A DNA stretch of 64,000 nucleotides, from contig JABAKD010000024.1 of NCBI GenBank assembly GCA_012845835.1, forward strand, positions 5,368,109 to 5,432,108, read 5' to 3'. The DNA is from Undaria pinnatifida (taxonomy: Eukaryota > Sar > Phaeophyceae > Laminariales > Alariaceae). The notes beneath the pieces are model-generated. The model did not search any database. It was given only the letters and a program-made list of their open reading frames with translations, and had not been told where the DNA came from. The position numbers and the translations under genes were made by a program. Below, in pieces: positions 5,076 to 64,000 of this stretch (positions are counted from its first letter, which is position 1; each line of letters begins with the position of its first letter).

Positions 5076-5079
5076 TTGT

Positions 5080-6019
5080 CTCTCCATGTCGAGGTACAAA
5101 AAATGAAACGGAGTCAGTCCATCACGTCGGGGACGGTTACACCCCAAATCTTCTTCTCTCCCAGGTGCACCTCCACTCCTTCTTCATTTACGAAAAGTTC
5201 GTATGCACTGTCCTTCCGCCATCTCCAGGGAAACCGGTTCATCCACTCGCGCTTGTAAGGGCCAGACTTGGACAGAACACAGATGCAATCGACAGTCACC
5301 TCCTGCGTAGTGGTCGGGCGTGAAAAACGCAGATTCAGGGCAGATTGGGGCGGACGTACGGCAAGATGTCGTCAAAGACATAGCGTCTAGCGACGTTAAA
5401 ATGGCAGGTGGACTGAACTGTCTTGCCCGGGTTTCTTACCACACACAGGTACCAGGTAATCGTAAAAGATCGCACGCCCATTCCGGAACTAGCGACGAGA
5501 ACACCGTGACAACGGCACTCTGATCACTCGGCGCCCGCGTTCGAGCAGCTCTACTACCGTAGTTGGACGCGTGTTACAATAGAGGTGGCACTTTTTCGTC
5601 TGAAACGGTTCCTGAATGACGGGGCTCTTTAACTCGAAATCGTCGGGAATAGGTGGTTTTTTGGCATGATCCTTGTTGTCTACGTAGGACATAGGATTTT
5701 TCAACCTGTGAGCAGTTGTAGTGTTCTCCAAATTGGCTTTTGAGTTAATACATGTCTTAAGCTCCCAAAGTCAACAGCCCCCGTAAAAAAAACGGTGAGT
5801 ACATCTATCGTAGAATGCGTCGTTGATCGCTAAAGGTGGAAGATGAATGTATTGTACGTACAGCCATTCCATCTTTAGCTAAGGTCCGTGAAGGGTATTA
5901 TACCTCTCACGGTTTGCTTGTTATACCCACAATGGCATGCCTAGTGTCGGCAAATGAACACGATTCACTATCATATATGCAAGAAGAACAAGAAACGTGA
6001 AAAGTCTTTCGTGAAGGTC
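5080..6019. other. start of unit, hairpins but no recognised gene
   Basis: Small minus-strand frames of 61, 65 and 80 codons (the last at 5,489-5,731, starting MENTTTAHRL) are preserved in all units, but nearly all this DNA is identical between copies, so conservation says nothing about coding. Two imperfect hairpins occur: GCTAAAG..CTTTAGC around 5,828-5,880, and CCGTGA..TCACGG around 5,886-5,911. I recognise no domain. Confidence 0.4.
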
Positions 6020-7237
6020 TCAGGTATCAATTCTGATCACATGTGGTGGTTCGAGCGGTAGCGTGCCGGCGTGCGCCAAACTAGTATACCCATGCTTATG
6101 CCAGAAGGCTCCCAGATGCGACATGGTGTAGCATGTCAACCCACAACTCACCAGACACGCCCTGTCATCAAAAGTCATGGCCACTTCACCCAGGTGCTCC
6201 CTTGCCTTGTCAACATCCTGACGGAGCTGCCGCCTCCCCGTGACCCACCCCCAAACGCCCCACGTGCCCTTGTTGCTTGTCAAATCCCTTCCCTCCCGCA
6301 TCTCCTCCCTTAACGCCACTTCAGCGGCGAACACGCGCTCAAGCCGGCCAGCAGCGGGAGCCACCATAACCGTGGCGACTCTCCCTTCTTTCTCTTCGGA
6401 GCCCATGATATCACCTGAAAATTCTTCGGAAATCCTAGTGAACATCACCGACCCGTCGTCGGCGGGCCACATGGCAGACCTGCCACTCCCGGACAGAAAC
6501 GGTGGTAGCCGCACCTCCCCGACCTTCAGGGCGAGTTTGGGGCCTGAAACTACCCTGGGGTTGTTGCTCTGGGAATCAGATCCATGCTCGTCCGAGTCCT
6601 GCTGTTCGCCGTCGGGGCTACTGGAGCTTTCCGGCGTAGACGTGGGGCTGTGACCGGTGCCATGGCTTGGGCTAGGGCTTGGGCTAGGGCTGGGGGTGGA
6701 TCTGTCCCGGCTGCCAGGAGAGGGAGGATTCGTGCTAGAGGTGGGGATGCCACTCGCTGGGTGTTTGGGATCACCACCGTTGGCGCTGGCGGCGGGGACG
6801 GGGTCAGAAGATGGGGTAGGTATGGCGGCGGGGCTAGCGATGGGGCTGGCGCTTGGGGTCTTGTTGTTGGCAAAATCTTCGTGGTCAGCGTTGGCGGTGG
6901 ACTGGTGAGCGCTGTCGTCTTTCCCGTTGGTGGCTGCGGGGTCGATTTGAGCATGCTTGAATGGTGATGGGTGGCCAGTGACCGGTCCCCCCGGAGCGTC
7001 GAAGTCGCCAGTCGGGAAGATCAAGTCAGCCTCGTCGTTGTTGTCGCCGTTCGCGGAGGGGGAGAGCGTAGCAGAGGAAGAGGAAGGCGGTGCCGTGGAA
7101 GAGGAGGAGGAGGAGGCACGGTTTGCGAGGGCTTCGATTTTTGCGTGATACGCCGCTTGCGACGCCTTGAGGGCGGGGGACAGCTCGACTGCCTGCCGGC
7201 CGGAGGCACCCTGTACGGTAGATGAGTTCGTGGACAA
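6020..7237 (-). CDS. Ser/Pro-rich protein with unique C-terminal domain, unknown function (unit 1)
   Basis: This is the longest open frame of the unit, 405 codons. Residues 1-40 look alpha-helical (KASQAAYHAKIEALANR). Residues 41-225 are low-complexity Ser/Pro/Ala/Thr with runs of Ser and an alternating Ser-Pro stretch near 180-191. Residues 226-405 are of ordinary composition with several Trp and Cys (GTWGVWGWVTG, CLVSCGLTC). I do not recognise a family. No ATG lies between the upstream in-frame stop and the frame; translation would need TTG at 7,237, or, more likely, an upstream exon spliced in (a CAG acceptor-like site sits at 7,211-7,213). A hydrophobic segment (SLLLVALLLL) lies just upstream in another frame. 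The three copies differ by few changes, three of them amino-acid replacements (295, 359, 214). Confidence 0.5.
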   Translation of the reverse strand: MSTNSSTVQGASGRQAVELSPALKASQAAYHAKIEALANRASSSSSSTAPPSSSSATLSPSANGDNNDEADLIFPTGDFDAPGGPVTGHPSPFKHAQIDPAATNGKDDSAHQSTANADHEDFANNKTPSASPIASPAAIPTPSSDPVPAASANGGDPKHPASGIPTSSTNPPSPGSRDRSTPSPSPSPSPSHGTGHSPTSTPESSSSPDGEQQDSDEHGSDSQSNNPRVVSGPKLALKVGEVRLPPFLSGSGRSAMWPADDGSVMFTRISEEFSGDIMGSEEKEGRVATVMVAPAAGRLERVFAAEVALREEMREGRDLTSNKGTWGVWGWVTGRRQLRQDVDKAREHLGEVAMTFDDRACLVSCGLTCYTMSHLGAFWHKHGYTSLAHAGTLPLEPPHVIRIDT

Positions 7238-7280
7238 AAATGGTCGACAAGAGAAGAAGGGCGACCAACAGCAAGGATGT
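7229..7280 (-). other. hydrophobic segment in a frame overlapping the start of the Ser/Pro-rich frame
   Basis: A minus-strand frame opening with ATG at 7,400 reads a basic stretch (CHRRT) followed by about 17 hydrophobic residues (SLLLVALLLLSTIFV), like a signal anchor. It overlaps the first codons of the 405-codon frame in a different phase. A GT..CAG pair of about 59 bp (7,211-7,269) would join the two frames but remove most of the hydrophobic core, so the connection is unresolved. The same arrangement is present in units 2 and 3. Confidence 0.3.
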
Positions 7281-7548
7281 ACGGCGGTGGCACGGAAAGT
7301 CAGAGCAGTCTCTCAGGGTACTAGAGAGGAGGTACCCTCGATGATAGATAGGGGGTTTGGTAAGCAAGGATTTTGGTGGCTCCTTATGTCCCCCAATCAA
7401 ACATAGAAGTAGTAGGCATCAATGTGTTTACTGTATACCAGTTGGGTTATGGGTAGGAGTAGGGTATAAAGGTATATAATAGCAGCATTGAAATCGTCGA
7501 ATGTCACAGTCCAAGGGGAACCCAACCCATGAACAATCTGCAAACATG

Positions 7549-7594
7549 TAGGTTACAACTACGTTTTCTTACAATTCGATTATGTTGTAACCTA
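7549..7594. repeat. perfect 11-bp inverted repeat
   Basis: TAGGTTACAAC at 7,549-7,559 is exactly complementary to GTTGTAACCTA at 7,584-7,594, with a 24-base AT-rich loop. It lies between the Ser/Pro-rich frame and the candidate exons to its right, so it could be a hairpin or a dimeric binding site. It is present identically in units 2 and 3. Confidence 0.7.
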
Positions 7595-7725
7595 TTGTTG
7601 AGGTGGTCGACCTTGGGATACCACCTTCACCGGTTTCAATACCACGTTTACATATTATCCAAGATCCAACATAATTTTAAAGCGGCGAATGCCCTATTGA
7701 CAGGTGCCTCGGTGGGTTGGCATAC

Positions 7726-8218
7726 CGGCTCTTCTCCCGGTTCCGGCATCTTGGACACGATGACCGAGTCGGCGCCGTAGCGAATGACCTGTGCGGTCTC
7801 AACGGCCCCAATGTATTCCACATAAACCACGCCCGCCTCGTCCTCCTGCACGTTGCAGAGTTCGAATGCGCAACCAGAGAAGGTTAGTGACGGAATGAGT
7901 GGTTTCAACAAGAAGATTTAGAAAGGGAGGCGGCGGTAATACCGTACACGGCGGTGTGCACCACACGCCCGGTGATAGAAGTTTCGGGGTCCTGAAAACG
8001 TACTCCCTGGTTTGATATACTCCAGAAATGTGATATGCAGCATCCCCCGGTGACAAATTGAGGGGTCGTTTCGAAGTTTTTTCCAGAGCGACACGACTTA
8101 CGCTGGGGGTTGCGATAAAAATGGGTGCAATAAAAGTGATTCCTCCAGCGAACTGCCACGTTTCAAACACACGTTGCTGAGTCGCGCGACAGCCCCTGCC
8201 GACCTCGAGCCCCCCGAA
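7726..8218 (-). CDS. candidate downstream exons of the secreted-protein gene (unit 1)
   Basis: Two minus-strand segments have good borders and phase 0 at both ends. The first, 8,102-8,218 (39 codons, FGGLEVGRGC..FIATPS), follows a CCCTAAC branch-like motif and CACCAG, and ends at GTAAGTCG. The second, 7,726-7,845 (40 codons, EDEAGVVYVEYIGAV..EPGEEP), follows CACTAAC and GTGCAG, and ends at GTATGC. A third piece between them (DPETSITGR..) could be an exon in unit 1, but its phase is shifted by the 11-bp difference in units 2 and 3. These segments have protein-like composition with alternating hydrophobic strands. They could be later exons of the gene starting at 11,374, or a separate gene beginning with an ATG at 8,451. 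The link is inferred only from strand, spacing and shared intron phase. Confidence 0.35.
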
Positions 8219-8520
8219 CTGGTGGGGTTAGGGCCATCATCACTTTTATGGTCGTGTTGATCTGATCCGACGTGCAAGGGAAAAATTATCCACATGCAAC
8301 GAATGGGGAGGTTGTTGCTGTGCTTGTCCTGGTATTTCGGCACATATCGCTTGGGGGTGTCATTCACGATATTAGGCATGACACGGCAGGGGGTGTGGTT
8401 GTTCAACGTACCCGGGTGATCAATCCGGTGGTTGGTTGGGATAAATAACATTTCACCGCCGGTTGGTATACTCCAGGGGTGAGCTATACAACGTACCGGG
8501 TGGTATACACCATCATGAAC

Positions 8521-8690
8521 GAGTAGTAGTAGTAGCAGTAGCAGTGCTAGCGACAGCGATACGAGTAGTAGTGGTAGTAGTTTATGAGGCAGAGCAGTAG
8601 TAGAGGCACATCAGCGTCAAATTTCAGTGCTACAATTGGCAGGTTTAGTACAGTAGTGGCGCAGTAGTAGTAGTAGCAGCAGCGGGTGAG
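8521..8690. repeat. GTA/GCA trinucleotide-rich microsatellite stretch
   Basis: Runs of GTAGTAGTAG mixed with GCAGTAGCAG occur at about 8,523-8,580 and again at about 8,652-8,685. Copy numbers of the triplets differ by substitution between units (GTAGTAGTAGTAGCAG versus GTAGTAGTAGCAGCAG). Found also at 31,351-31,515 and 54,179-54,340. Confidence 0.8.
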
Positions 8691-9229
8691 TCTTCTCTGC
8701 CGCCAGCTGGATAATTGTTTTAGGCAGGTTAATGTGGCCCTCTTGACCTCTCTAACAGCAGACAACACGTTAGAACGACCGATCTTAACTATATGCGTTC
8801 GATGCATGCTTTCGACTCTGTTTACGTTTGCATAACTACGAAGAGTTAGGTGCACGCTGTGAAATGACCAAAAATACGGTTAAACTGCTTCTTAGGAAAC
8901 ACGTGCTGCATGTTGGGAGATGGGAGCCGTGACAATATCAACTTGCAGGGGAAATTCTTGAAGAAATGTGATCCCGCTTTTGCGAGGCGAATTCGGCTTG
9001 GTTCATACGTTCCCACTACTATTTCAGCCGTGTTGTATATGAGGATACTGCTGTGGTAGACAAATACTGTCCTTCAGTAGCGCGCCCGCGGGGGTATGCG
9101 GCCAACTCATGAACGAGATAGGGGTATCACGCTTGACACTGCAAACATTTCCCCCGGCAGTTGTATACCACCAGCAACATGAGAAGTATGAGCTAAACAC
9201 CAGAACATCGGAACTCAATTTTGACGCAC

Positions 9230-11374
9230 CTGGGGCGCTTTGCATAGCACATTCTTAGTCGTGGACAAATTGAAGAAACGGCGTTTCTATCATCCACACA
9301 AAGGGATGCCCCTCATTAATCGATTTCAAATTTTGATGATGATGGGAACCACAAGCGATTACAACAGCACTTACAATGCTGCCATCCATGACCCCCGCGA
9401 CGGAACCGGCGGCCTCGAAGGTGACCTTGCCGGCTACGGAGAAAAGGGGCACAGTAGAACCCTGCCGTTGGGGAGAGGAGCAGGGGTCGCCTGAATTTCA
9501 ACCTCATACGATATCCGGTGGTTGGTTAGCTGCCATAGACCATGAGTTGTAACTTCTTGGAAGTTTCAATATTCTCTCGATTCACACTGTCAGCTGACCA
9601 TCGTACGGGCAACGACAGGGCTAAGCACACCCTCAGCCAAGTCCGGCAGTATGCATCTAATGGCAGTATGTATCTTGATGACGGAGAACCTGACAGTGTA
9701 TTGAGTGCTCCTCGTCTCTTTCCTGTGGCAATCCCTACAACTTCACAACCTCCATATGAATACTGTAGCCAGCACAAGGTTACGGCGTTCAGTTACCTCT
9801 ACTCACGGACATCCAGCGCATCCTGTGTCTTTGTGGGTTCATCACAGATACACACACCTGGTATTTATTTAGGAGTGCACTACGTGATAGAGGTGATACA
9901 TAGCGGATGCAATACTTCTACGGGGAATGAGCAATGCAAGGCCGACGTGCTGTGTACCAAGGCGGAAAGCACCCAAGCAATCAAACCAATGCAAGACCGA
10001 CGTACTCGTTACCAAAGCGGAAATCATCCAAGCGATCAAACTTGACACAGCGAGACTGGACCGAGTGAGAAGAAAGGCATGACATAGATAAGATTGAAGA
10101 GCAAAAAACCAACATGATACGAAAGAAGTAAGGAGACAAGGAAAAGTAAACATGGAACAAGGAGCGAACAGCGAACAGAAAGGGGAACCATAGACTATAC
10201 AAGGGGAATGCTGAAGAAAAACGGAACGTCAAAAAGGAAAATAACGAGAGCAGAAAACCTAAAAGAAAACAATCACGAGAGAGGCGAAGAGCCATGAAAC
10301 AAAGGGAACAAATACATAATATTGACGTAATGGATGCGCACACACAATCAAGCATAATCTAATTAGACAGAAACCGCACCCAGCAAAGGTAAAACACGTG
10401 AGATTCGTACAAAACCACCTACAGAAAACACTCATTCGTGGACGAATTTCACCTGATCACGGGCGATGGTGATGCCAGGCGATTGGAGCGTCATCGTTGC
10501 TCCTTTGTGCACTACAAAGTGGATGTTCTTCGTGTCGAGAGGTGCGTGCGAACGCAGTACAAGGTCATGGTCGACGTGCATGACCTATACGAGGACGCAC
10601 GCGGTGCAGAGCACAAGGTTGCGGGCATGTTTATCGAAGACAAAACAACTTGGAAAAAGCCTGCTGGACAAAAAATAGTTTGGTTGGAAATATAGTGTCT
10701 ATTTAAGTACCACATTAACACTAAAATAGTAATTACATTTCTGTACGTGTGGTTACTAGGATTTTGGCGTATATGTAAGGGCCGTTTGTATTTTAATCCA
10801 CCAACAAAACATTCCTTTAATTCCGTTCATAAGTGTTCATACCGACGCGTAAAACGAATTGTATAACGGGCCCTATTCAGGTTACGGCGTGTATGTGGGC
10901 GCCTGTAAGGCGACACGGCACACGCAGCCCTCTTGCTGCTATACTACTGCTGGTGCTGCCGCTGCTGCTACTGCTAAACGATACCGATGCCAGTCCTGCT
11001 GCTGCTCCTCCTCTGCTGTCATAGTCACAAGACGCGGGGCGGCGGACGAACTATAGACTCTAGAGGGAGGAGGCATTAGCCAAGGGGCATGGTAGATAAA
11101 ACCCAACCCGTTCCATAGTGCACAGCGGACTTCATGTCACGCTGTGTGTGGGTGCTGCTCCTCCTTCTGCTGCTGCTTTATCAGTGCATACGTCGCTCAC
11201 CCTGGGCTCGTGGCACGAGATATCCCTGAGGAACGTGATCGTCCCTGACACGACCATCTCCCCCGGGGGAAGCTCGTCGCAGGACCGCACGTAGACTGAA
11301 GCTCCATCACAAAGAACGGCGTTGAACAGCATGGCAGCCGAGAACACGGAAGCTATGGTCCAAGACACCCTCAT
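9230..11374 (-). CDS. secreted protein, N-terminal three exons; possible right-handed beta-helix protein (unit 1)
   Basis: Exon 1 (11,201-11,374) starts at an ATG in a CCACAATGAGG context and encodes a clear signal peptide (MRVSWTIASVFSAAMLFNA..CDG), then a Cys-Asp-Glu-Leu motif and alternating strands (VVSGTITFLRDISC). It ends at GTGAGC. Exon 2 (9,375-9,461) has a pyrimidine-rich CAG acceptor and a GTAAGT donor and reads VAGKVTFEAAGSVAGVMDGS. Exon 3 (9,230-9,286) lies between GATAG and GTGCGT and reads KRRFFNLSTTKN. All junctions are phase 0. The order signal peptide, 'C-x-L..I-x-F..DI-x-C', 'V-T-F-x-A..G-x-x-D-G', 'R-x-F-x-L-S' resembles the start of pectin-lyase-fold secreted proteins, so a wall or extracellular role is inferred. 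The C-terminal exons are not settled, and intron 1 (1.7 kb) is long. Confidence 0.45.
9932..10041. repeat. 55-bp imperfect direct duplication
   Basis: Positions 9,932-9,986 and 9,987-10,041 are adjacent copies beginning CAATGCAAG and ending near AGCAATCAAAC / AGCGATCAAAC, about 80% identical. The pair lies inside intron 1 of the secreted-protein gene model. It is present at 32,760-32,869 and 55,588-55,697. Confidence 0.8.
10046..10330. other. purine-rich tract inside intron 1
   Basis: About 280 bases of the plus strand are strongly enriched in A and G (AGAAGAAAGG-like words). The minus strand gives a long hydrophobic frame only because it is pyrimidine-rich. No gene is supported. The same tract occurs in units 2 and 3. 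Confidence 0.6.
10438..10695 (+). CDS. hypothetical 85-codon frame, possible exon
   Basis: Plus-strand frame MDEFHLITGDGDARRLERHR.. ending KIVWLEI with a charged, protein-like composition. It is antisense to intron 1 of the secreted-protein model. The frame stays open upstream of the ATG for only a short distance and no family is recognised. AT-rich sequence follows the stop. It may be a terminal exon of a plus-strand gene or chance. Copies: 33,266-33,523 and 56,094-56,351. Confidence 0.2.
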   Translation: MDEFHLITGDGDARRLERHRCSFVHYKVDVLRVERCVRTQYKVMVDVHDLYEDARGAEHKVAGMFIEDKTTWKKPAGQKIVWLEI

Positions 11375-11934
11375 TGTGGCTGCTTTTAGAATTACCGTTG
11401 CTGTGCTGTGATGAGACCTGGGCGGAAAAGGCTTACCTCCACGGCAGCTGGGCAGGGCAGGGCAACGCGATGCTGTGTGCGCGGATGATGGAGCGAGGAT
11501 GGACATTCGCAGGAGACGAACCTAATAATGGACACACACCCGGAGAAGACATCTGATTGGCCTATCTTTGGCTCGGAGGAGGAGCCTAGTTGATAGGTTC
11601 CATGGTTACGAATGAGAAATATTTATGTTGACGGATGATCGCCCCATCGTTATGCCTTTGGAAGACACCGAATACCAAGTGTTGTTCTTGATTCTTGATG
11701 GGCTGCGTGGTGACGTGATGTCTACAGACGGTTGTTTATGTTGCAGAGCAGTAGTTAATCGTCTATCCCACCTACCACCCAATCACCAAGACAACAGCAG
11801 CTCCTACGATAGCCATGAATTATACTCAGTACACAGTACGCAATGTCGAGCACGTTCAGCGAGATACTCTGGCTATACCATGGTTACATCTCTAGAAGCC
11901 CATGAGGCACAACCACAGGAGGGAATACTGTGTC

Positions 11935-13110
11935 CCGTGGTATGCCCTCTGCGGTGTTTCCACTGAGCATGGGGTACTCGATGGGAAATACCTTGAGAAG
12001 CGACATCGGAATGCACCGTTACACGTAGCGTGGGGTACCCCATGCGGGAATTCAACCTATAGGATACACCATCGGCACAGGCCGTGGAATAATCCATGGG
12101 ACGGGACATGTGCTACCGCATATTACACGAGATATCCCACGAGAAACGTCATGGGGCGTACCATGGCGAACACCCCGTGGAGTCCCATAGGGACCATGGG
12201 AGCATGCGTCTAGTGGCATATCTCACGGGATGTCCTATGGCACGTGCCATGGTACGCCCGATGTTACAAACAATCAATTATGGCATACCTCGCGAAAAAT
12301 GCACCATAGTCTAGTCTAATGACTTATAGGGGAATTTGTCTAATGGCATCCTCCATTCAATGCACAATGAAATAATGGAATGACCGCGGGACACTCCATG
12401 GTCTGTATCATAGCGTGCAGCGTATATCGTACTATCGCTGTGATACTTTACAGTGTACCTACCGTGGTGAACGAATATTTACGCACACTGGTGACGCCAT
12501 TGACGCATTGATCTCGTGGTGTGTCCTATGGGATGCACCACGGTATGTGCCAAGGCTTATCTCATTGGGCATTTACTCCATTGTTTGCGCCTGAATGCCT
12601 GGCACGCCATGTCACTGTTATGTAATCATAGAGCAAGCCACGGGACACCCTGTCAAACTTCTCATTAGACACAGTTATCGACACGCCGTTATTGACATAT
12701 TTGACGGCAAAACGCTGTGGGGCGTGCCATGACCAAACCTCACGGAGGCTATTGCGGCCCACCATGGGAACATTCTCCGCTTAAAATATCCCATTGGATG
12801 CCACATGGAAAATCATGGCGTAGACTATTCCATGATATTACAATGGGGTCAGGGTACTCCCATCGCACATCCAAATATTGGAGGGGGTTACGCCCACGAT
12901 AATAGTCCAACATTGGCATGCCCCACGGCCTTGACCACGGGACAAGCTGTGGCGTACTCCGTGATATGCCCGATGAAAAATCGATGCGTCACATCATGGT
13001 GTACCCAGCGATACACTCCATGAGGTACCCATCAGATTAGCCGTGAGATGATGCGTGAGTTGGTTCAGGCCATGAGAGGTAACGTGGGTGGCATGGGACC
13101 ACCCATTGGA
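11935..13110. repeat. field of degenerate CCATGG/CCCGTGG-like motifs
   Basis: For about 1.2 kb the sequence is saturated with words such as CCATGGG, CCCGTGG, GGGGTAC, GGCATACC, CACGGGA and ATCCCA, spaced about 10-25 bases apart and often palindromic. Many neighbouring pairs align as a decayed 20- to 25-bp minisatellite. A smaller outlier lies at 13,515-13,565. Related GGTATACNCC words appear at 7,920-8,515. No coding frame longer than about 100 codons occurs. Copies: 34,763-35,938 and 57,591-58,765. Confidence 0.6.
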
Positions 13111-13417
13111 CGTACGGTGAGACATAAATAGCATAGAACATTACCATGTACGTACGTGGAAAACATGTATGTGCACTTTTTTTCTATTATTTTTTTTTTC
13201 TCACACTTCCACTTTCCAGCTTCTGGACAAGCCGTGGTCACAGGTGTCGTCCCTTCTCCCCCCCGGTTCTTGCCTTCAATTTTTATCGCGCATAGGGTTC
13301 AGCAGTCCCACTGCTCGTCGATTTTTCATCGAGTGTTGCTAACTCACGCTGTCGCGCTTTAAGCAAGTCAATTTGTGCACAAGAAGAAGTCCCAACGAAT
13401 TTATACGAGTATGCACT

Positions 13418-13492
13418 CGGCGGGGCTTGAACTCACAAAACTGACCTATACCAGGCTCAACAATAAACCTGATACGCCACCGGGGCGACCGT
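13418..13492 (-). repeat. tRNA-derived SINE-like head with pol III A and B boxes
   Basis: On the minus strand, TGGCGTATCAGG (13,468-13,479) fits the A-box pattern TRGYNNANNNG, and GTTCAAGCC (13,424-13,432) fits the B-box pattern GWTCRANNC, 35 bases apart as in a tRNA. The surrounding sequence (GCCCCGGTGGCG.., ..GTGAGTTCAAGCCCCGCC) is typical of tRNA-like heads. The acceptor stem does not pair, so this is not a working tRNA; a SINE or tRNA pseudogene is more likely. Unit 2: 36,246-36,320; unit 3: 61,054-61,128. Confidence 0.5.
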
Positions 13493-13499
13493 GTGCATT

Positions 13500-16066
13500 A
13501 TGGGATCAGGAGTGTTCACAGAATACCTGATAGGGCACCCCATGGCATCCCATGGGCTCCACCATAAGACACATGCCTCTCGTGGGCTACAGTATCGTAC
13601 AGACCAAGGGAACACGTTTGCTGCCTTTTCCGAAGAAGAATCGACCTAATGCACAGCAGTTGGAACCCCAGAGTCCGTATGAATACCCACTGTCGTTTTT
13701 GGTTTCCTATTGATTGGCCGATGTTCGAGTTTCACTGAGATCCAAAAGTACGAAGCAAACAGAGCAGAAACATGATATATCGCAGACCTTCAGGAGGGTA
13801 GCCACTAATGATGTCAATTTTATCCCGGCTGCAGACTGCAACGACAAGGGCTCTTGTGCCTTTCATCTGCACCCGATAATGTGTGGGATAAAATAATCAG
13901 TTGTGCACGGAATACACATGCCTTGTTGTGCGCGCAAAATTACGCGAAAACATAAAAAAAAACGTTGTCAATCTGTTCGTCCCTCTAGCCTGCAGACACA
14001 CGCCGGAAACACAAAGCCGACGCATACCTGGCCGTATAGTATTGACCGATGTCAGGGCTCACCTGAATATTCTCGGTGATGTCTACTTCTAGACGATTAT
14101 CACCACCACGGCTCGACACAGCTCACAAGCCAAACGTGACGTGCCGCGTCACTCAGTGAAGGTGTGTGTCCGTACGCGCAATAACGAGGGTGACACAATA
14201 CGATAGGCGGTGCAGCCTGTTCTACGACCGTGTGACATACCGAGCGTGCTGGGGCCCGATCTGATGAGCCAGTCAACCGGTGCAGTTCACACGCTCTACT
14301 ACTGCCTCTCACAGCACGATTCGGAATACGGCATCTCACTATGTACAGTAACGTGTGGGGCAGCACCCTCCACAAATAACATATATTCGACACCACGCTA
14401 CACCTTCTGCATTCTACACCAAAAATCTCAAACCGCTGCGGTTCCGAAGTTCCATGGGCAACCAACAGTGTAAACCTGCTGTACGTCGACTTGCGGGTCA
14501 CTCCCCCCCCTCCCTGTTAAACCGAACCGAACCTACTCAAGTGTATACGTTTTCCACCACTTGAAATTACTATGAAATGACCCATCTATAATATCCTCGG
14601 CGGTTACCCCTCATACCACCTTCCCTCCAAATCTTGCTTCCATGCTGTCGTTGTTGACATGCAGTTTGTAAATAAACGGGGTTCTGTTCCTCCTCCAGGT
14701 AAAGCGGTTCTCCCATTTCATTGCGAAACGGCCGGGCCTCTACAGAACACGTGTACCGTCAACGCTTGCCTCCTGTGTGAACGTTTGGTGTGTGATGCAA
14801 ACATGCAATGAGGGGGGGGAGGGGAGACGTAACGCAGGGATGCTGTTCCAGTGATGATGCTCATCATACGTTCGACGCGCATTCACCACATGCTGCTGTC
14901 ATCAATACAAGTACATCTCTACGGTGGGATCAGCCACATGAGCATCGAATTCAACTTCACTATGTAGGCACCACAAGTATAGCGGGGCTCGCTGCCACAT
15001 TTTTGGTTGTACAGTTGGTTGTACAGTAGGAATAAAGCGTCCTGTTGCCGTCATCGCTATACCTTCCGCACTCATCGTAAAGCACCGTCCACTCGCTAAG
15101 TGCTCCAACCGAGGGGGCATGGAGATCACAGATGGCGTCATAATGGCGCATAGTACACTTGCTTGCACCGCTATGTATCCGGCACGCTATCGTATAACAC
15201 CATATTCAACAGCTGTGCTTTCCGATCGAGGGGAGTACTATGACCACCGCTGGTGCTATTCGACAACCGCACACCGCAAATATGTTCTTGCTAGCCCCGC
15301 TTGTCTGAGACAAAAACTTAAACATTTGACACCAGTTCAGAGTTAATCATGCTACTGCCATGGCATTGCCCCGGAAGACTAGCAAATACGTAGGATTCCG
15401 GATGTGGGATATGGAACTGGGATAAAAGTGTTTCACATGTCTTTGAAGGCGTGCACGCGTAGAGACAAGAGGGGATGCTAAATTGGTACTAGGTATCGTC
15501 CTCGCTTATCGGTCAGTTCCTTCCGTGGCCGTTGGAATAATGCTATTATATTCTCTGAGGTCACAAGGGAGTGGACATCGTGGAGCTTGCTCAGTTCAGA
15601 GGCCTTGTTTCTGTATCAGGGGTTTTCATTTTACCACGCGACAGGCGTTAAGATATTAAAAGCTAAGAAATATTGGCCGGAATTTAGCGACATCCAGGGC
15701 TAAGAAATTGTGCTGATTTCAAGGGGGAAATATTAGTTAGACATCAGGAGGTGCAAGAGGTTGAGCAGAAAAGAAATTACCAGTATGCACTATAACCCCG
15801 AAGAATGAGCAACTGCTTAGACACTCCCCCAGGCCGCATCAGGCTCCCAAATAAGCTGTCTTTTCCCCAAACTTTTCCCCACAATAAATACGTATAAGTT
15901 TTCAATATCGTGTTGGATTATGTTTTCGAGAGCTGAGATTGTTTTCGCCAAAATGTATTCCGTCCGCCCTCAGAGCATCCAGATGCGCAACAGCACCGTT
16001 TTCTACCGCCCTGCGGCCGAATCAGTGCGTGCGGTTGGGTGGCTTCTTTCGCCTGTACACCAGATA
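13500..16066. other. gene-poor stretch
   Basis: About 2.6 kb with only short overlapping frames. A minus-strand segment at about 14,990-15,160 (YDAICDLHAPSVG..) and a plus-strand one at 15,119-15,346 both look vaguely protein-like, but neither has convincing splice borders. No repeat family, tRNA or mobile element is apparent. Unit 3 carries a few substitutions and single-base indels here. Confidence 0.4.
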
Positions 16067-21890: not shown

Positions 21891-21900
21891 GTACGGAACA

Positions 21901-53874: not shown

Positions 53875-54885
53875 CTGGTGGGGTTAGGGCCATCATCACT
53901 TTTATGGTCGTGTTGATCTGATCCGACGTGCAAGGGAAAAATTATCCACATGCAACGAATGGGGAGGTTGTTGCTGTGCTTGTCCTGGTATTTCGGCACA
54001 TATCGCTTGGGGGTGTCATTCACGATATTAGGCATGACACGGCAGGGGGTGTGGTTGTTCAACGTACCCGGGTGATCAATCGGGTGGTTGGTTGGGATAA
54101 ATAACATTTCACCGCCGGTTGTTATACTCCAGGGGTGAGCTATACAACGTACCGGGTGGTATACACCATCATGAACGAGTAGTAGTAGTAGCAGTAGCAG
54201 TGCTAGCGACAGCGATACGAGTAGTAGTGGTAGTAGTTTATGGGGCAGAGCAGTAGTAGAGGCACATCAGCGTCAAATTTCAGTGCTACAATTGGCAGGT
54301 TTAGTACAGTAGTAGCGCAGTAGTAGTAGTAGCAGCAGCGGGTGAGTCTTCTCTGCCGCCAGCTGGAGAATTGTTTTAGGCAGGTTAATGTGGCCCTCTT
54401 GACCTCTCTAACAGCAGACAACACGTTAGAACGACCGATCTTAACTATATGCGTTCGATGCATGCTTTCGACTCTGTTTACGTTTGCATAACTACGAAGA
54501 GTTAGGTGCACGCTGTGAAATGACCAAAAATACGGTTAAACTGCTTCTTAGGAAACACGTGCTGCATGTTGGGAGATGGGAGCCGTGACAATATCAACTT
54601 GCAGGGGAAATTCTTGAAGAAATGTGATCCCGCTTTTGCGAGGCGAATTCGGCTTGGTTCATATGTTCCCACTACTATTTCAGCCGTGTTGTATATGAGG
54701 ATACTGCTGTGGTAGACAAATACTGTCCTTCAGTAGCGCGCCCGCGGGGGTATGCGGCCAACTCATGAACGAGATAGGGGTATCACGCTTGACACTGCAA
54801 ACATTTCCCCCGGCAGTTGTATACCACCAGCAACATGAGAAGTATGAGCTAAGCACCAGAACATCGGAACTCAATTTTGACGCAC

Positions 54886-57030
54886 CTGGGGCGCTTTGCA
54901 TAGCACATTCTTAGTCGTGGACAAATTGAAGAAACGGCGTTTCTATCATCCACACAAAGGGATGCCCCTCATTAATCGATTTCAAATTTTGATGATGATG
55001 GGAACCACAAGCGATTACAACAGCACTTACAATGCTGCCATCCATGACCCCCGCGACGGAACCGGCGGCCTCGAAGGTGACCTTGCCGGCTACGGAGAAA
55101 AGGGGCACAGTAGAACCCTGCCGTTGGGGAGAGGAGCAGGGGTCGCCTGAATTTCAACCTCATACGATATCCGGTGGTTGGTTAGCTGCCATAGACCATG
55201 AGTTGTAACTTCTTGGAAGTTTCAATATTCTCTCGATTCACACTGTCAGCTGACCATCGTACGGGCAACGACAGGGCTAAGCACACCCTCAGCCAAGTCC
55301 GGCAGTATGCATCTAATGGCAGTATGTATCTTAATGACGGAGAACCTGACAGTGTATTGAGTGCTCCTCGTCTCTTTCCTGTGGCAATCCCTACAACTTC
55401 ACAACCTCCATATGAATACTGTAGCCAGCACAAGGTTACGGCGTTCAGTTACCTCTACTCACGGACATCCAGCGCATCCTGTGTCTTTGTGGGTTCATCA
55501 CAGATACACACACCTGGTATTTATTTAGGAGTGCACTACGTGATAGAGGTGATACATAGCGGATGCAATACTTCTACGGGGAATGAGCAATGCAAGGCCG
55601 ACGTGCTGTGTACCAAGCCGGAAAGCACCCAAGCAATCAAACCAATGCAAGACCGACGTACTCGTTACCAAAGCGGAAATCATCCAAGCGATCAAACTTG
55701 ACACAGCGAGACTGGACCGAGTGAGAAGAAAGGCATGACATAGATAAGATTGAAGAGCAAAAAACCAACATGATACGAAAGAAGTGAGGAGACAAGGAAA
55801 AGTAAACATGGAACAAGGAGCGAACAGCGAACAGAAAGGGGAACCATAGACTATACAAGGGGAATGCTGAAGAAAAACGGAACGTCAAAAAGGAAAATAA
55901 CGAGAGCAGAAAACCTAAAAGAAAACAATCACGAGAGAGGCGAAGAGCCATGAAACAAAGGGAACAAATACATAATATTGACGTAATGGATGCGCACACA
56001 CAATCAAGCATAATGTAATTAGACAGAAACCGCACCCAGCAAAGGTAAAACACGTGAGATTCGTACAAAACCACCTACAGAAAACACTCATTCGTGGACG
56101 AATTTCACCTGATCACGGGCGATGGTGATGCCAGGCGATTGGAGCGTCATCGTTGCTCCTTTGTGCACTACAAAGTGGATGTTCTTCGTGTCGAGAGGTG
56201 CGTGCGAACGCAGTACAAGGTCATGGTCGACGTGCATGACCTATACGAGGACGCACGCGGTGCAGAGCACAAGGTTGCGGGCATGTTTATCGAAGACAAA
56301 ACAACTTGGAAAAAGCCTGCTGGACAAAAAATAGTTTGGTTGGAAATATAGTGTCTATTTAAGTACCACATTAACACTAAAATAGTAATTACATTTCTGT
56401 ACGTGTGGTTACTAGGATTTTGGCGTATATGTAAGGGCCGTTTGTATTTTAATCCACCAACAAAACATTCCTTTAATTCCGTTCATAAGTGTTCATACCG
56501 ACGCGTAAAACGAATTGTATAACGGGCCCTATTCAGGTTACGGCGTGTATGTGGGCGCCTGTAAGGCGACACGGCACACGCAGCCCTCTTGCTGCTATAC
56601 TACTGCTGGTGCTGCCGCTGCTGCTACTGCTAAACGATACCGATGCCAGTCCTGCTGCTGCTCCTCCTCTGCTGTCATAGTCACAAGACGCGGGGCGGCG
56701 GACGAACTATAGACTCTAGAGGGAGGAGGCATTAGCCAAGGGGCATGGTAGATAAAACCCAACCCGTTCCATAGTGCACAGCGGACTTCATGTCACGCTG
56801 TGTGTGGGTGCTGCTCCTCCTTCTGCTGCTGCTTTATCAGTGCATACGTCGCTCACCCTGGGCTCGTGGCACGAGATATCCCTGAGGAACGTGATCGTCC
56901 CTGACACGACCATCTCCCCCGGGGGAAGCTCGTCGCAGGACCGCACGTAGACTGAAGCTCCATCACAAAGAACGGCGTTGAACAGCATGGCAGCCGAGAA
57001 CACGGAAGCTATGGTCCAAGACACCCTCAT
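54886..57030 (-). CDS. secreted protein, N-terminal three exons (unit 3)
   Basis: Exons 56,857-57,030, 55,031-55,117 and 54,886-54,942. Signal peptide and splice sites are unchanged from the other copies; the few base differences in this stretch fall in the introns. Confidence 0.45.
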
Positions 57031-58782
57031 TGTGGCTGCTTTTAGAATTACCGTTGCTGTGCTGTGATGAGACCTGGGCGGAAAAGGCTTACCTCCACGG
57101 CAGCTGGGCAGGGCAGGGCAACGCGATGCTGTGTGCGCGGATGATGGAGCGAGGATGGACATTCGCAGGAGACGAACCTAATAATGGACACACACCCGGA
57201 GAAGACATCTGATTGGCCTATCTTTGGCTCGGAGGAGGAGCCTAGTTGATAGGTTCCATGGTTACGAATGAGAAATATTTATGTTGACGGATGATCGCCC
57301 CATCGTTATGCCTTTGGAAGACACCGAATACCAAGTGTTGTTCTTGATTCTTGATGGGCTGCGTGGTGACGTGATGTCTACAGACGGTTGTTTATGTTGC
57401 AGAGCAGTAGTTAATCGTCTATCCCACCTACCACCCAATCACCAAGACAACAGCAGCTCCTACGATAGCCATGAATTATACTCAGTACACAGTACGCAAT
57501 GTCGAGCACGTTCAGCGAGATACTCTGGCTATACCATGGTTACATCTCTAGAAGCCCATGAGGCACAACCACAGGAGGGAATACTGTGTCCCGTGGTATG
57601 CCCTCTGCGGTGTTTCCACTGAGCATGGGGTACTCGATGGGAAATACCTTGAGAAGCGACATCGGAATGCACCGTTACACGTAGCGTGGGGTACCCCATG
57701 CGGGAATTCAACCTATAGGATACACCATCGGCACAGGCCGTGGAATAATCCATGGGACGGGACATGTGCTACCGCATATTACACGAGATATCCCACGAGA
57801 AACGTCATGGGGCGTACCATGGCGAACACCCCGTAGAGTCCCATAGGGACCATGGGAGCATGCGTCTAGTGGCATATCTCACGGGATGTCCTACGGCACG
57901 TGCCATGGTATGCCCGATGTTACAAACAATCAATTATGGCATACCTCGCGGAAAATGCACCATAGTCTAGTCTAATGACTTATGGGGATTTTGTGCAATG
58001 GCATCCTCCATTCAATGCACAATGAAATAATGGAATGACCGTGGGACACCCCATGGTCTGTATCATAGCGTGCAGCGTATATCGTACTATCGCTGTGATA
58101 CTTTACAGTGTACCTACCGTGGTGAACGAATATTTACGCACACTGGTGACGCCATTGACGCATTGATCTCGTGGTGTGTCCTATGGGATGCACCACGGTA
58201 TATGCCAAGGCTTATCTCATTGGGCATTTACTCCATTGTTTGCGCCTGAATGCCTGGCACGCCATGTCACTGTTATGTAATCATAGAGCAAGCCACGGGA
58301 CACCCTGTCGAACTTCTCATTAGACACAGTTATCGACACGCCGTTATTGACATATTTGACGGCAAAACGCTGTGGGGCGTGCCATGACCAAACCTCACGG
58401 AGGCTATTGCGGCCCACCATGGGAACATTCTCCGCTTAAAATATCCCATTGGATGCCACATGGAAAATCATGGCGTAGACTATTCCATGATATTACAATG
58501 GGGTCAGGGTACTCCCATCGCACATCCAAATATTGGAGGGGGTTACGCCCACGATAATAGTCCAACATTGGCATGCCCCACGGCCTTGACCACGGGACAA
58601 GCTGTGGCGTACTCCGTGATATGACCGATGAAAAATCGATGCGTCACATCATGGTGTACCCAGCGATACACTCCATGAGGTACCCATCAGATTAGCCGTG
58701 AGATGATGCGTGAGTTGGTTCAGGCCATGAGAGGTAACGTGGGTGGCATGGGACCACCCATTGGACGTACGGTGAGACATAA

Positions 58783-59420
58783 TATTTGGCAACACGTATC
58801 TCTTGCGTATAATTAGCGATGTCGATAATAATGGTGACTGTATGATGATGGTGACAAACACAGTGCATGACCACATCACCTCGCCTGTTGCATTTGACAA
58901 TACGTATCTCTTTCTTATAATTAGCGATGTCAGAAAATAATGGTACCTACAAATATTCTATAAGATATTCTAGCTTTCGATCGATGTATCATACAACAAC
59001 AAACTATGAAGATTTAACACGTTATTTACTACACTTAAACACTGGGTTGCATGCTGCATCTAACATCAAACCTTCTAGAATAGTAAACATTACAAGCCAG
59101 ATGATATAAAGGGATGTCTTATTGCTTCAATCGTCAGGTTTGTCCCCTTTGAGAATTTATAGTTTCCGCGCACATATTGAAATGTCCCCCCCCCCCCCCT
59201 CCCCCCCCTCCCCTCCCCCTCCACTGACCTCTTTTTCATAACAAACCCCAACCCTTTCCCCCCCCCCGCCCCTCCGTCCCCCGATCCCCCCCCCCCCCTT
59301 CCGCCTACTCTGTCCAAACGCCCCACTCACAATCAAAATCGGTCTGAGTAATAAACACCTATACGCAGTTGATACCACGTCATTATCTTTCTGACCATCC
59401 ATGACGAAGGTTTCAATTAT

Positions 59421-59466
<46 letters not shown>

Positions 59467-60332
59467 AACGCCCCCTCTTTTCCGACCACCTACACGATCG
59501 CCTAGACCTAGCACACGCGTATAACAAGCTGCTACATATCTTTGATCTCACAGCCGAAGTGTATTTGAATATTATTTGTGACCTAAACCTCCTAAAAATC
59601 CCCCCCCCCCCCTCTTGCTCTCCCTTACTCAAACGCCCCACCAAATATCAAAATCCGCCACATTAACAAACACTTCACGCACAGGATATCACCTCATTAT
59701 CTTTCGAGAGCCATCCATGCCGCTGTGTTTCCCCCCTCCCCCCCCTCCAACGCCCCCTCTTTCCCGACCACCTGCACGATCGCGTAGACCTAGCACCACG
59801 CGTATAACAAGCTGATACAAATCTTTGATCTCACAGCCGAAGTGTATTTGAACATTATTTGTGACCTAAACCTCCTAAAAAATTCCCCCCCCCCCCCCCC
59901 CTCTTGCTCTCCCTTCCTCAAACGCCCCACCAAATATCGAAATCCGCCACATTAATAAACACTTCACGCACAGGATATCACCTCATTATCTTTCGAGAGC
60001 CATCCATGCCGCTGTGTCCCCCCCCCCCCCCGCCTCGAACGCCCCTTTCTTCCCCATCACCCGCACCTTTGCCTAGACCTAGCACCACACGTATAACAAA
60101 CCCCTCACCTAAAGCCCTTTCCCCCCCCCCCCCTCGCCCCCCGCCCCCGCCCCCACCCCCCACCCTCCCCCCCCAACCCATCCCAACCCCACCACCTCGA
60201 ACACTCCACCCTCTCTTTACTCACTGATTGTACGACTTATCCCAGAATATACACGATAAACTGATGTATTATTTCCAAAAATGTCACATTTATCCCCTCG
60301 AAATAATGTATAGTTTCCAGGCACATATCGAG

Positions 60333-60364
<32 letters not shown>

Positions 60365-60763
60365 GCCCCCAATAATATACTGGTGCCAAAACCGTCAGAT
60401 TTATCCCCTCGAAAGGATTTATAGCTTACATGCACAAATTGCCCCTAACCCCCCCCCACCCCGACCCCCCTCCAAACCCGCTCGCTTTTGATCAAAACCA
60501 GGCCCCCCCTTTGCCTTCACAGCTGTCAGATTTTGTCCCCCTCAGAAACGGGTTTTATAGTTTCCGCGCACAGACTGACTAAAATCATCCTGTTGACCCT
60601 GATAGCTACACTGTAGCTGTAAGGGGAGTCGCCGACCTATATCCTTAATGAGGACACACAACTCGTAATGCGCGCGATCGGAGTATCACACACAGCTTGC
60701 AAAGATGAGTTTCGACGAAATTTTCGATCTCACAGCTGGAGTGTATTTTAATTTTTATAATAA
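58783..60763. mobile_element. 1,981-bp insertion in unit 3, rich in dispersed-repeat arms and poly-C
   Basis: Units 1 and 2 read ..GAGACATAAATAGC..; unit 3 has 1,981 extra bases with ATAA on both sides (58,779-58,782 and 60,760-60,763). The insert starts TATTTGGCAACACG, has an internal 40-bp near-repeat (58,791-58,837 and 58,898-58,943), then reverse-orientation arms of the 'CACTCCAG' family separated by C tracts, two tandem ~289-bp subunits (59,520-60,110), and a core arm at 60,515-60,750. Its right end is exactly the inner end of the arm, followed by AT-rich bases. No coding capacity is visible. Confidence 0.8.
59422..59463. repeat. 42-base C homopolymer
   Basis: An uninterrupted run of 42 C within the unit 3 insertion. 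A second run of 29 C lies at 60,336-60,364 and many shorter ones occur between. Such lengths are hard to sequence, so exact counts are uncertain. Confidence 0.85.
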
Positions 60764-63700
60764 ATAGCATAGAACATTACCATGTACGTACGTGGAAAAC
60801 ATGTATGTGCACTTTTTTTCTATTTTTTTTTTTTTCTCACACTTCCACTTTCCAGCTTCTGGACAAGCCGTGGTCACAGGTGTCGTCCCTTCTCCCCCCC
60901 GGTTCTTGCCTTCAATTTTTATCGCGCATAGGGTTCAGCAGTCCCACTGCTCGTCGATTTTTCATCGAGTGTTGCTAACTCACGCTGTCGCGCTTTAAGC
61001 AAGTCAATTTGTGCACAAGAAGAAGTCCCAACGAATTTATACGAGTATGCACTCGGCGGGGCTTGAACTCACAAAACTGACCTATACCAGGCTCAACAAT
61101 AAACCTGATACGCCACCGGGGCGACCGTGTGCACTATGGGATCAGGAGTGTTCACAGAATACCTGATAGGGCACCCCATGGCATCCCATGGGCTCCACCA
61201 TAAGACACATGCCTCCCGTGGGCTACAGTATCGTACAGGCCAAGGGAACACGTTTGCTGCCTTTTCCGAAGAAGAATCGACCTAATGCACAGCAGTTGGA
61301 ACCCCAGAGTCCGTATGAATACCCACTGTCGTTTTTGGTTTCCTATTGATTGGCCGATGTTCGAGTTTCACTGAGATCCAAAAGTACGAAGCAAACAGAG
61401 CAGAAACATGATATATCGCAGACCTTCAGGAGGGTAGCCACTAATGATGTCAATTTTATCCCGGTTGCAGACTGCAACGACAAGGGCTCTTGTGCCTTTC
61501 ATCTGCACCCGATAATGTGTGGGATAAAATAATCAGTTGTGCACGGAATACACATGCCTTGTTGTGCGCGCAAAATTACGCGAAAACATAAAAAAAAAAC
61601 GTTGTCAATCTGTTCGTCCCTCTAGCCTGCAGACACACGCCGGAAACACAAAGCCGACGCATACCTGGCCGTATAGTATTGACCGATGTCAGGGCTCACC
61701 TGTATATTCTCGGTGATGTCTACTTCTAGACGATTATCACCACCACGGCTCGACACAGCTCACAAGCCAAACGTGACGTGCCGCGTCACTCAGTGAAGGT
61801 GTGTGTCCGTACGCGCAATAACGAGGGTGACACAATACGATAGGCGGTGCAGCCTGTTCTACGACCGTGTGACATACCGAGCGTGCTGGGGCCCGATCTG
61901 ATGAGCCAGTCAACCGGTGCAGTTCACACGCTCTACTACTGCCTCTCACAGCACGATTCGGAACACGGCATCTCACTATGTACAGTAACGTGTGGGGCAG
62001 CACCCTCCACAAATAACATATATTCGACACCACGCTACACCTTCTGCATTCTACACCAAAAATCTCAAACCGCTGCGGTTCCGAAGTTCCACGGGCAACC
62101 AACAGTGTAAACCTGCTGTACGTCGACTTGCGGGTCACTCCCCCCCCTCCCTGTTAAACCGAACCGAACCTACTCAAGTGTATACGTTTTCCACCACTTG
62201 AAATTACTATGAAATGACCCATCTATAATATCCTCGGCGGTTACCCCTCATACCACCTTCCCTCCAAATCTTGCTTCCATCCTGTCGTTGTTGACATGCA
62301 GTTTGTAAATAAACGGGGTTCTGTTCCTCCTCCAGGTAAAGCGGTTCTCCCATTTCATTGCGAAACGGCCGGGCCTCTACAGAACACGTGTACCGTCAAC
62401 GCTTGCCTCCTGTGTGAACGTTTGGTGTGTGATGCAAACATGCAATGAGGGGGGGGAGGGGAGACGTAACGCAGGGATGCTGTTCCAGTGATGATGCTTA
62501 TCATACGTTCGACGCGCATTCACCACATGCTGCTGTCATCAATACAAGTACATCTCTACGGTGGGATCAGCCACATGAGCATCGAATTCAACTTCACTAT
62601 GTAGGCACCACAAGTATAGCGGGGCTCGCTGCCACATTTTTGGTTGTACAGTTGGTTGTACAGTAGGAATAAAGCGTCCTGTTGCCGTCATCGCTATACC
62701 TTCCGCACTCATCGTAAAGCACCGTCCACTCGCTAAGTGCTCCAACCGAGGGGGCATGGAGATCACAGATGGCGTCATAATGGCGCATAGTACACTTGCT
62801 TGCACCGCTATGTATCCGGCACGCTATCGTATAACACCATATTCAACAGCTGTGCTTTCCGATCGAGGGGAGTACTATGACCACCGCTGGTGCTATTCGA
62901 CAACCGCACACCGCAAATATGTTCTTGCTAGCCCCGCTTGTCTGAGACAAAAACTTAAACATTTGACACCAGTTCAGAGTTAATCATGCTACTGCCATGG
63001 CATTGCCCCGGAAGACTAGCAAATACGTAGGATTCCGGATGTGGGATATGGAACTGGGATAAAAGGGTTTCACATGTCTTTGAAGGCGTGCACGCGTAGA
63101 GACAAGAGGGGATGCTAAATTGGTACTAGGTATCGTCCTCGCTTATCGGTCAGTTCCTTCCGTGGCCGTTGGAATAATGCTATTATATTCTCTGAGGTCA
63201 CAAGGGAGTGGACATCGTGGAGCTTGCTCAGTTCAGAGGCCTTGTTTCTGTATCAGGGGTTTTCATTTTACCACGCGACAGGCGTTAAGATATTGAAAGC
63301 TAAGAAGTATTGGCCGGAATTTAGCGACATCCAGGGCTAAGAAATTGTGCTGATTTCAAGGGGGAAATATTAGTTAGACATCAGGAGGTGCAAGAGGTTG
63401 AGCAGAAAAGAAATTACCAGTATGCACTATAACCCCGAAGAATGAGCAACTGCTTAGACACTCCCCCAGGCCGCATCAGGCTCCCAAATAAGCTGTCTTT
63501 TCCCCAAACCTTTTCCCCACAATAAATACGTATAAGTTTTCAATATCGTGTTGGATTATGTTTTCGAGAGCTGTGATTGTTTTCGCCAAAATGTATTCCG
63601 TCCGCCCTCAGAGCATCCAGATAACCAAAATATCGCAACAGCACCGTTTTCTACCGCCCTGCGGCCGAATCAGTGCGTGCGGTTGGGTGGCTGCTTTCGC

Positions 63701-64000
63701 GTGTACACCAGATAGAGGATTGCAACGTACTGCACTGCAGACCCTTGTAGAGGATATAAATACCTCGACCTGCACCTTCCTAGAGGACATCAATACCTTG
63801 ACCTGCACTGCATCGTGGCGGACGATTGACGGTGTTGAGGGTCCGCGGTGATGAAACTCTCCCGAGACACTTTGAGGTATTCTCGACCGAGGCTTCTCGC
63901 AACTCAAGTCATATGTCGTCAACGACCACGGCCGTGTTGGTGGCTATAGCTTGGAGGGACATCGCACGGCATTGAAGATGAAGCGCGCGGACGCTTTATC

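What the first reader, a model, noticed from the sequence alone, without database searches (positions are those of the whole stretch)
5076..64000. 22.8-kb near-identical macro-tandem repeat of non-rDNA content
Direct comparison shows two full units and a third partial unit, all in the same orientation, with only sparse differences. The unit contains candidate genes, a SINE-like element, a telomere-like tract and its own nested tandem arrays. It is not rDNA, histone or another familiar amplified cluster. Long identical units of this size point to ongoing unequal exchange or recent amplification.
Basis: seen in the sequence. Interest (0 to 1): 0.8.

Follow-up and report, generated by a model that had tools for sequence, protein, structure and literature searches.

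The report
Tandem orphan-gene array in brown alga
A roughly 23-kb block carrying one rapidly evolving gene of unknown kind is repeated head to tail in a brown-alga chromosome, and one copy looks like a hybrid made by a single misaligned exchange between two neighbouring copies.

Summary
The window has two 22,828-bp units plus part of a third, head to tail. Fetched flanks show six units over ~130 kb: one old copy (~65-90% in alignable blocks) and recent ones (~89-100%). It is not gene-free: each unit carries a minus-strand gene, three exons of which are open in 6 of 6 copies. The protein has no credible match in Pfam, NCBIfam, PHROGs or PDB sequences.
The middle unit is a one-breakpoint hybrid: at 583 of 586 ungapped sites where units 1 and 3 differ, unit 2 follows unit 3 left of ~31.54 kb and unit 1 right of ~31.84 kb. 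One unequal crossover gives this; so would an assembler walking a repeat loop twice.
The same family forms two further macro-tandem arrays, with gene spacings mostly ~16-23 kb, on C61 and elsewhere on C31; sampled DNA of these arrays does not match this unit. The genome is a brown alga, probably Undaria pinnatifida (inferred).
The kind of structure is known; the gene family is unnamed in the libraries searched. Its function is not shown.

The parts
3656..26483 (.). Unit 1 (22,828 bp)
   Evidence: self-BLAST; the phase at which a unit is said to begin is arbitrary
26484..49311 (.). Unit 2 (22,828 bp), hybrid: left part like unit 3, right part like unit 1
49312..64000 (.). Unit 3, part inside the window (continues to window-equivalent 72246 = C31:5440354)
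31541..31835 (.). Interval of the inferred crossover in unit 2 (unit 1 equivalent 8713-9007)
   Evidence: switch of 586 informative substitutions
7726..7845 (-). Unit 1 gene, exon e1 (40 codons; AG before it, GT after it; further upstream exons not found)
6152..7210 (-). Unit 1 gene, exon e2 (353 codons: S/P-rich variable part, then conserved core 6152-6535)
5114..5302 (-). Unit 1 gene, last exon e3 (62 aa + stop), the best conserved part of the family
27953..28141 (-). Unit 2 gene, e3
   Evidence: coordinates by the offset to unit 1
28991..30049 (-). Unit 2 gene, e2
   Evidence: coordinates by offset
30565..30684 (-). Unit 2 gene, e1
   Evidence: coordinates by offset
50781..50969 (-). Unit 3 gene, e3
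   Evidence: coordinates by offset
51819..52877 (-). Unit 3 gene, e2
   Evidence: coordinates by offset
53393..53512 (-). Unit 3 gene, e1
   Evidence: coordinates by offset
14584..14823 (-). Relic e3 of a second family member in unit 1 (38% to e3, two stops); 71% DNA identity to the e3 of the gene at C31:6.73 Mb
37412..37651 (-). Same relic, unit 2
62221..62460 (-). Same relic, unit 3
58783..60759 (.). Insertion of ~1.98 kb in unit 3 only, with poly-C runs and a 289-bp tandem; short target duplication (ATAA or TAA, read by eye); relatives downstream
22726..24479 (.). Nested tandem array (585 bp x3) in unit 1; same at 45557-47309 in unit 2; no aligned counterpart in units 3, 4 and 5
25633..26004 (.). 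SINE-like dispersed element (also 19113-19485, 41941-42314, 48462-48832; inverted 1024-1420)
5492..5770 (-). Dispersed repeat fragment between e2 and e3 (4670 candidates genome-wide; most of the 150 scored copies broken by stops)

Best explanation
This is a tandem segmental-duplication array in a brown-alga chromosome in which each ~20-27 kb unit carries one member of an uncharacterised multi-exon gene family. It grew by non-allelic homologous recombination between misaligned units. Shown: six head-to-tail units of graded age; three exons open in every unit; unit 2 is a one-breakpoint hybrid of units 1 and 3; units 3 and 5 have uneven, mosaic-like identity; the same gene family forms two more macro-tandem arrays. 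Inferred: the hybrid arose by one recent unequal crossover; the genes are expressed and copies or variants are favoured; the species is Undaria pinnatifida.
For: Period, orientation and extent. Graded identity. Unit 2 switch: 165 of 167 sites left are unit-3-like and 418 of 419 right are unit-1-like, interval 8712-9008; columns with gaps were left out. Differences since: 4 substitutions in ~5.06 kb left, 2 substitutions and six 1-bp indels in ~17.5 kb right. Unit 3 is 99-100% like unit 1 over ~5.3-16 kb in 1-kb blocks but ~90-98% outside it. Unit 5 falls from ~94-98% to ~83-90% against unit 4 after window-equivalent 100663. Exons open and in multiples of 3 in 6 of 6 units. e2 of the old unit: 189 substitutions and 3 indel runs, all multiples of 3, no stop, against 3.8 stops expected (P(0)=0.02) and 21 of 97 noncoding indels in multiples of 3. 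Family: 50 matches to e3 and 38 to the core at E up to 0.01, all on 5 of 68 contigs. Other arrays: C61, 8 gene places and 8 mid-unit places alternating; C31 6.34-6.55 Mb, 9 gene and 6 mid-unit places.
Against: No read depth, long reads or second assembly could be examined. If this is the 2020 Undaria assembly, subread N50 was 11.5 kb, shorter than the unit, so the number of near-identical units is not secure. dN/dS between the old and the recent units is 0.76-0.84, 0.64-0.71 in core plus e3, and 0.41-1.11 between recent units on few changes: weak constraint or fast evolution, no clear sign of function. No transcript evidence; upstream exons and start codon not found; 3 of 586 sites do not fit the single switch. 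Whole sister units were not fetched; their repetition rests on one gene piece and one 3-kb mid-unit piece each.
Confidence: 0.78

Rival explanations
1. Unit 2 is an assembly artefact: units 1 and 3 share a ~10.7-kb stretch at ~99.5%, and the assembler walked the loop (shared stretch, end of unit 1, start of unit 3) twice. The real array would have five units. (Confidences of the rivals are not exclusive of one another.)
For: The walk would give exactly the observed order: unit 1, hybrid, unit 3. The two copies of the loop differ by only 6 substitutions in ~22.5 kb and six 1-bp indels. If the assembly is the Undaria one, subread N50 was 11,463 bp. The source there was one male gametophyte clone from one zoospore, so two alleles would not be the cause.
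Against: Unit 2 has three private substitutions and its parents differ from it at three more sites; no N in 224 kb. Units 4 and 5 differ from the rest by several percent, and the C61 copies differ by 1-4% from the query copy, which a loop error would not give.
Confidence: 0.2
2. Homogeneity comes mainly from gene conversion between long-standing units, with little change in unit number.
For: A short tract where unit 3 suddenly matches unit 4 (11998-12470: 1 of 471 differ, against 9 of 471 to unit 1) and the ~10.7-kb stretch shared by units 1 and 3.
Against: A conversion tract has two ends inside the unit; unit 2 shows one switch, with identity running out of the unit on both sides into its neighbours.
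Confidence: 0.12
3. The array is a neutral by-product: a repeat-rich region duplicates at random and the genes are passengers that decay in time.
For: High dN/dS, relic second gene in units, another tandem family without this gene next door.
Against: Three macro-tandem arrays carry this one family, and the three exons found stay open in 6 of 6 units here. How common macro-tandem arrays are in this genome at large was not measured.
Confidence: 0.3

Closest known systems
Sdic tandem gene family of Drosophila melanogaster (PMC7475035; abstract start and passages seen)
   Same: Lineage-specific gene repeated head to tail (six copies over ~46 kb in the reference strain), unequal crossing over expected, copies mixed by gene conversion, TE insertions that distinguish regions, annotated copies with protein-coding potential.
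   Different: Smaller unit, known chimeric origin and an impact on sperm competition; here the unit is ~20-27 kb, the gene is unknown, there are no population data, and one family makes three arrays.
KIR, opsin and similar vertebrate clusters of long gene-bearing units (recalled, not looked up)
   Same: Head-to-tail units of tens of kb, hybrids by unequal crossover.
   Different: Known receptor genes with population copy-number data.
Human macrosatellites such as D4Z4 and RS447 (recalled, not looked up)
   Same: Long tandem units with a coding frame.
   Different: Units of a few kb and many copies; here six units of graded age.

Membership tests
Tandem gene array grown by unequal crossover | Three or more head-to-tail units, same orientation | tested here: met
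   units 0 to 5
Tandem gene array grown by unequal crossover | Hybrid unit with a single switch between neighbouring parents | tested here: met
   583 of 586 sites; an assembly loop could mimic it
Tandem gene array grown by unequal crossover | Copy number varies between individuals | not testable with these tools
   one genome only
Tandem gene array grown by unequal crossover | Unit carries an intact gene | tested here: inconclusive
   three exons open in 6 of 6; upstream exons, start codon and expression not known. One search reports one TAG in the old unit's match, which reached 8 residues past the exon end; one search shows none inside e2
rDNA or other RNA-gene array | Rfam or tRNA match | tested here: not met
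   none at gathering score
Bulb-type lectin (B_lectin), a resemblance I thought of from memory | Profile match or fold match | tested here: inconclusive
   B_lectin not among families reported for 9 members (filters drop most matches above E 0.1); models too poor to compare (mean pLDDT 54 and 59), no fold search run
Viral or phage-derived gene family | Relatives in viral contigs or phage families | tested here: inconclusive
   none confirmed, but single-protein queries find close relatives only; best PHROG E 0.017, one member of 9

The most novel reading that the evidence does not exclude
A fast-evolving gene family, perhaps restricted to brown algae (variable S/P-rich or acidic part plus a conserved two-exon core), is repeatedly and independently amplified as ~20-kb macro-tandem units, because selection for new or more copies (for example in recognition or defence) keeps rescuing unequal-crossover products; the window catches one such product soon after it formed.
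Probability: 0.2. Interest if true: 0.6.

Novelty: new member of a known kind. Interest (0 to 1): 0.42.

Why it matters
It gives a hybrid unit with its breakpoint placed within ~295 bp, and a graded series of older units in one locus, in a lineage (brown algae) far from the usual models. It also points to a gene family with no match in the libraries searched, members of which sit in macro-tandem units in three arrays, so copy-number variation, expression and selection can be tested directly. It warns that assemblies from shorter reads may miscount such genes.

Tried and rejected
Pfam scan of six frames of about 3656-23655 with stops written as X (12 frame pieces in 4 calls): best E 0.074 and 0.24, both far under the curated cut-offs. 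Exons of split domains could be missed and no positive control was run. About 23657-26483 was not scanned by Pfam.

Other ORFs of the first list: 22601-23233+ and 23234-23818+ overlap the minisatellite. 9542-10045+ has no row under dN/dS 0.4. Some small pieces in other frames do (for example 3770-4045-, 9872-10228- and 10402-10692+, 0.34-0.36 on few changes); they were not pursued, so a further small gene is not excluded. 3649-4224- and 4612-5106+ were not examined further. ORF 5492-5770- looked like an exon by its many relatives but is a dispersed repeat.

Trigger-factor hit of the core (E 0.0084) is not shared by the profile of the family, so taken as chance; TOM1 hits at E 1.4 likewise.

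Structure: two AlphaFold jobs on single exons (17 rows each; unit 1 core and unit 2 e3), mean pLDDT 54 and 59; too weak for a fold search, so none was run. The core and e3 are split by an intron and could not be folded joined.

Paper searches on brown-alga genomes, tandem arrays or segmental duplication (listings only, with the best-ranked few shown; for hybrid tandem genes in general) showed no title or abstract start describing this family; that is no proof of absence.

Mended on re-check: identity ranges, spacing range, tree support, which loci lie behind the typed set, the GC statement (window only), and three membership rows lowered to inconclusive.
Full report
OBSERVATION. The repeat is real. 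Self-BLAST gives 3656-35955 against 26484-58782 at 99.3% (period 22,828), 3656-13127 against 49312-58782 at 97.7%, and the resumed match 13124-16352 / 35952-39180 against 60760-64000 at 98.7%, one orientation throughout. No Rfam family at the gathering score and no tRNA gene.

SETTING. The window is C31:5368109-5432108 of a 511,146,479-bp genome in 68 contigs. The EsV-1-7 cysteine motif family gives 150 of 150 scored matches over the cut-off (2157 candidates) and none in 14 control genomes; that this family marks brown algae is recalled. The size agrees with the Undaria pinnatifida assembly of 2020 (511,280,173 bp in 114 scaffolds, 50.14% GC; passages of PMC7058681), and the window's GC is 50.2% (from the base counts); but 68 contigs is not 114, so the species is an inference. 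That assembly used one male gametophyte clone (section 5 read) and PacBio subreads of N50 11,463 bp.

EXTENT. Sixteen 10-kb stretches were fetched and joined with the window (224 kb, no N). Window-equivalent positions: unit 0 about -23.9 to 3.7 kb, long with insertions and old; unit 1 3656; unit 2 26484; unit 3 49312; unit 4 72247; unit 5 92206 to about 106.4 kb. Distances between gene cores: 27.5, 22.8, 22.8, 22.9 and 20.0 kb. Identity by blocks of 1000 alignment columns: units 1-2 mostly 99.4-100% but ~90% in the first 1.65 kb; units 2-3 99-100% up to ~16 kb in unit 1 coordinates, then 91-98%; units 3-4 91-99%; units 4-5 94-98% and then 83-90% in the right half up to where unit 5 fades; unit 0 to unit 1 about 65-90% in most blocks, with a few poorly aligned blocks at 55-63%.

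THE HYBRID UNIT. Units 1 and 3 differ by 586 substitutions in ungapped columns. Unit 2 agrees with unit 3 at 165 of 167 sites up to 8712 (unit 1 coordinates) and with unit 1 at 418 of 419 sites from 9008; the exceptions are 6598, 8426 and 16779. Unit 2 has three private substitutions. Against its presumed parents it shows 4 substitutions over ~5.06 kb on the left and 2 substitutions plus six single-base indels over ~17.5 kb on the right. Two tandem units A and B that misalign and cross over once give A, B/A, B, which is what is seen. An assembler passing twice through the loop between the two copies of the ~10.7-kb shared stretch gives the same order. The present data do not separate these; the private differences speak mildly for a real unit.

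OLDER EXCHANGES. Unit 3 is 99-100% like unit 1 over ~5.3-16 kb but not outside it, with a short tract where it is unit-4-like (11998-12470). Unit 5 drops from recent to old identity at window-equivalent ~100663. So exchange seems to have happened more than once, by crossover, conversion or both.

THE GENE. On the minus strand of unit 1: e1 7726-7845, e2 6152-7210, e3 5114-5302, with GT and AG at the intron borders and phase 0 (sequence read). All three are open and in multiples of 3 in units 0 to 5. In e2 the old unit differs by 189 substitutions and three indel runs (24, 6, 24) without a stop; a simple simulation expects 3.8 stops, P(0)=0.02; noncoding indels in 7846-12000 are multiples of 3 in 21 of 97. 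In the paralogues read, the conserved core ends just before a GT donor (read as V-S) and the last exon begins mostly E/KVTVDG or close to it. Against function: dN/dS of old versus recent units is 0.76-0.84 for the three exons and 0.64-0.71 for core plus e3 in the three pairs computed; between recent units it ranges 0.41-1.11 on few changes. Start codon and upstream exons were not found.

THE FAMILY. An 85-aa frame holding e3 finds 50 places and the core 38 at E up to 0.01, all on C31, C61, C24, C1 and C32. The 50 are: C31 24 (6 genes of this array, 5 relics in it, 13 elsewhere), C61 11, C24 8, C1 4, C32 3; some carry stops or are fragments. e1 finds only the six units here, though similar short frames were seen by eye in L036 and L038. 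In a tree of core plus e3 of 16 members, the C61, C24 and C1 rows each group with their own contig with strong support, C32 with 86/88; all seven C31 rows fall together (90/90, midpoint root); the window gene has a long branch and no strongly supported partner. Searches with the typed nine-member set: Pfam best E 0.14, NCBIfam 0.22, PHROGs 0.017, PDB profile 1.4. No relative confirmed in viral contigs (two single-protein queries) or prokaryote genomes (one query), which reach close relatives only. No other eukaryote could be searched.

TWO SISTER ARRAYS. Counts are lower bounds, because only the best ~40 candidates are scored. On C61 a 3.8-kb gene piece recurs at 8 places, 9.25-9.41 Mb (96-100%, two of them in two pieces), and a 3-kb mid-unit piece recurs at 8 places that alternate with them (main pieces 96-100%, two places split); gene spacings are 18.1-21.0 kb with one of 33.8 kb. 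On C31 at 6.34-6.55 Mb nine gene places (78-100%) and six mid-unit places (89-100%) are found, with gene spacings 16.5-23.3 kb and two larger, 39.6 and 46.7 kb; the first ~900 bp of that mid-unit query is itself a dispersed repeat, but the array places match beyond it. By blastn against unit 1, the four pieces from the two sister arrays (L035, L037, L054, L055) give no match, and of four further gene pieces only L036 and L038 match, in the exons and the relic. So the family is shared at protein level, and the sampled surroundings are not; most of each sister unit was not fetched. Macro-tandem amplification of this family thus seems to have happened at least three times.

READING. Ordinary in kind: a tandem gene array moving by unequal exchange, like Sdic in Drosophila (passages of PMC7475035). 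What is less ordinary is the size of the unit, the clean hybrid, and the repeated amplification of one gene family with no match in the libraries searched. Function is a guess; a recognition or defence role would fit fast evolution and copy-number growth but nothing here tests it. Structure prediction on single exons gave no usable models.

Noticed in passing
L019-L022 (C31:5487017-5522108): A different tandem family with a period of about 11.5-12.2 kb at 73-82% identity, three partial copies; the e3 and core searches found nothing in it. Part of it shares ~300 bp with unit position 13.1-13.5 kb.
   Followed up: partly
C31:6404546-6546000 (L035, L051, L055 lie in it): Gene places repeat at a distance of about 79.3-79.4 kb (6404546/6483877 and 6421008/6500413), suggesting a higher-order duplication of several units.
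   Followed up: no
58783-60759: Insertion in unit 3 only, with poly-C runs and a 289-bp tandem; a relative at 90% lies at C31:5514169-5515481 and inverted ones nearby. Part of it is similar to the SINE-like elements.
   Followed up: partly
14584-14823, 37412-37651, 62221-62460: Relic last exon of a second family member in the units, with two stops, similar in DNA to the e3 of the gene at C31:6.73 Mb.
   Followed up: partly
5492-5770: Fragment of a very common dispersed repeat between e2 and e3; the open frame of 93 aa here is probably chance.
   Followed up: yes
L043, L044, L045 (C24:5.57-5.71 Mb): Closely similar family members on C24, at least one with parts of the core lost.
   Followed up: no
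L037 (C61:9.25 Mb): This C61 gene has a long acidic low-complexity part and what may be a degenerate second copy of the start of the core (E 0.034).
   Followed up: no
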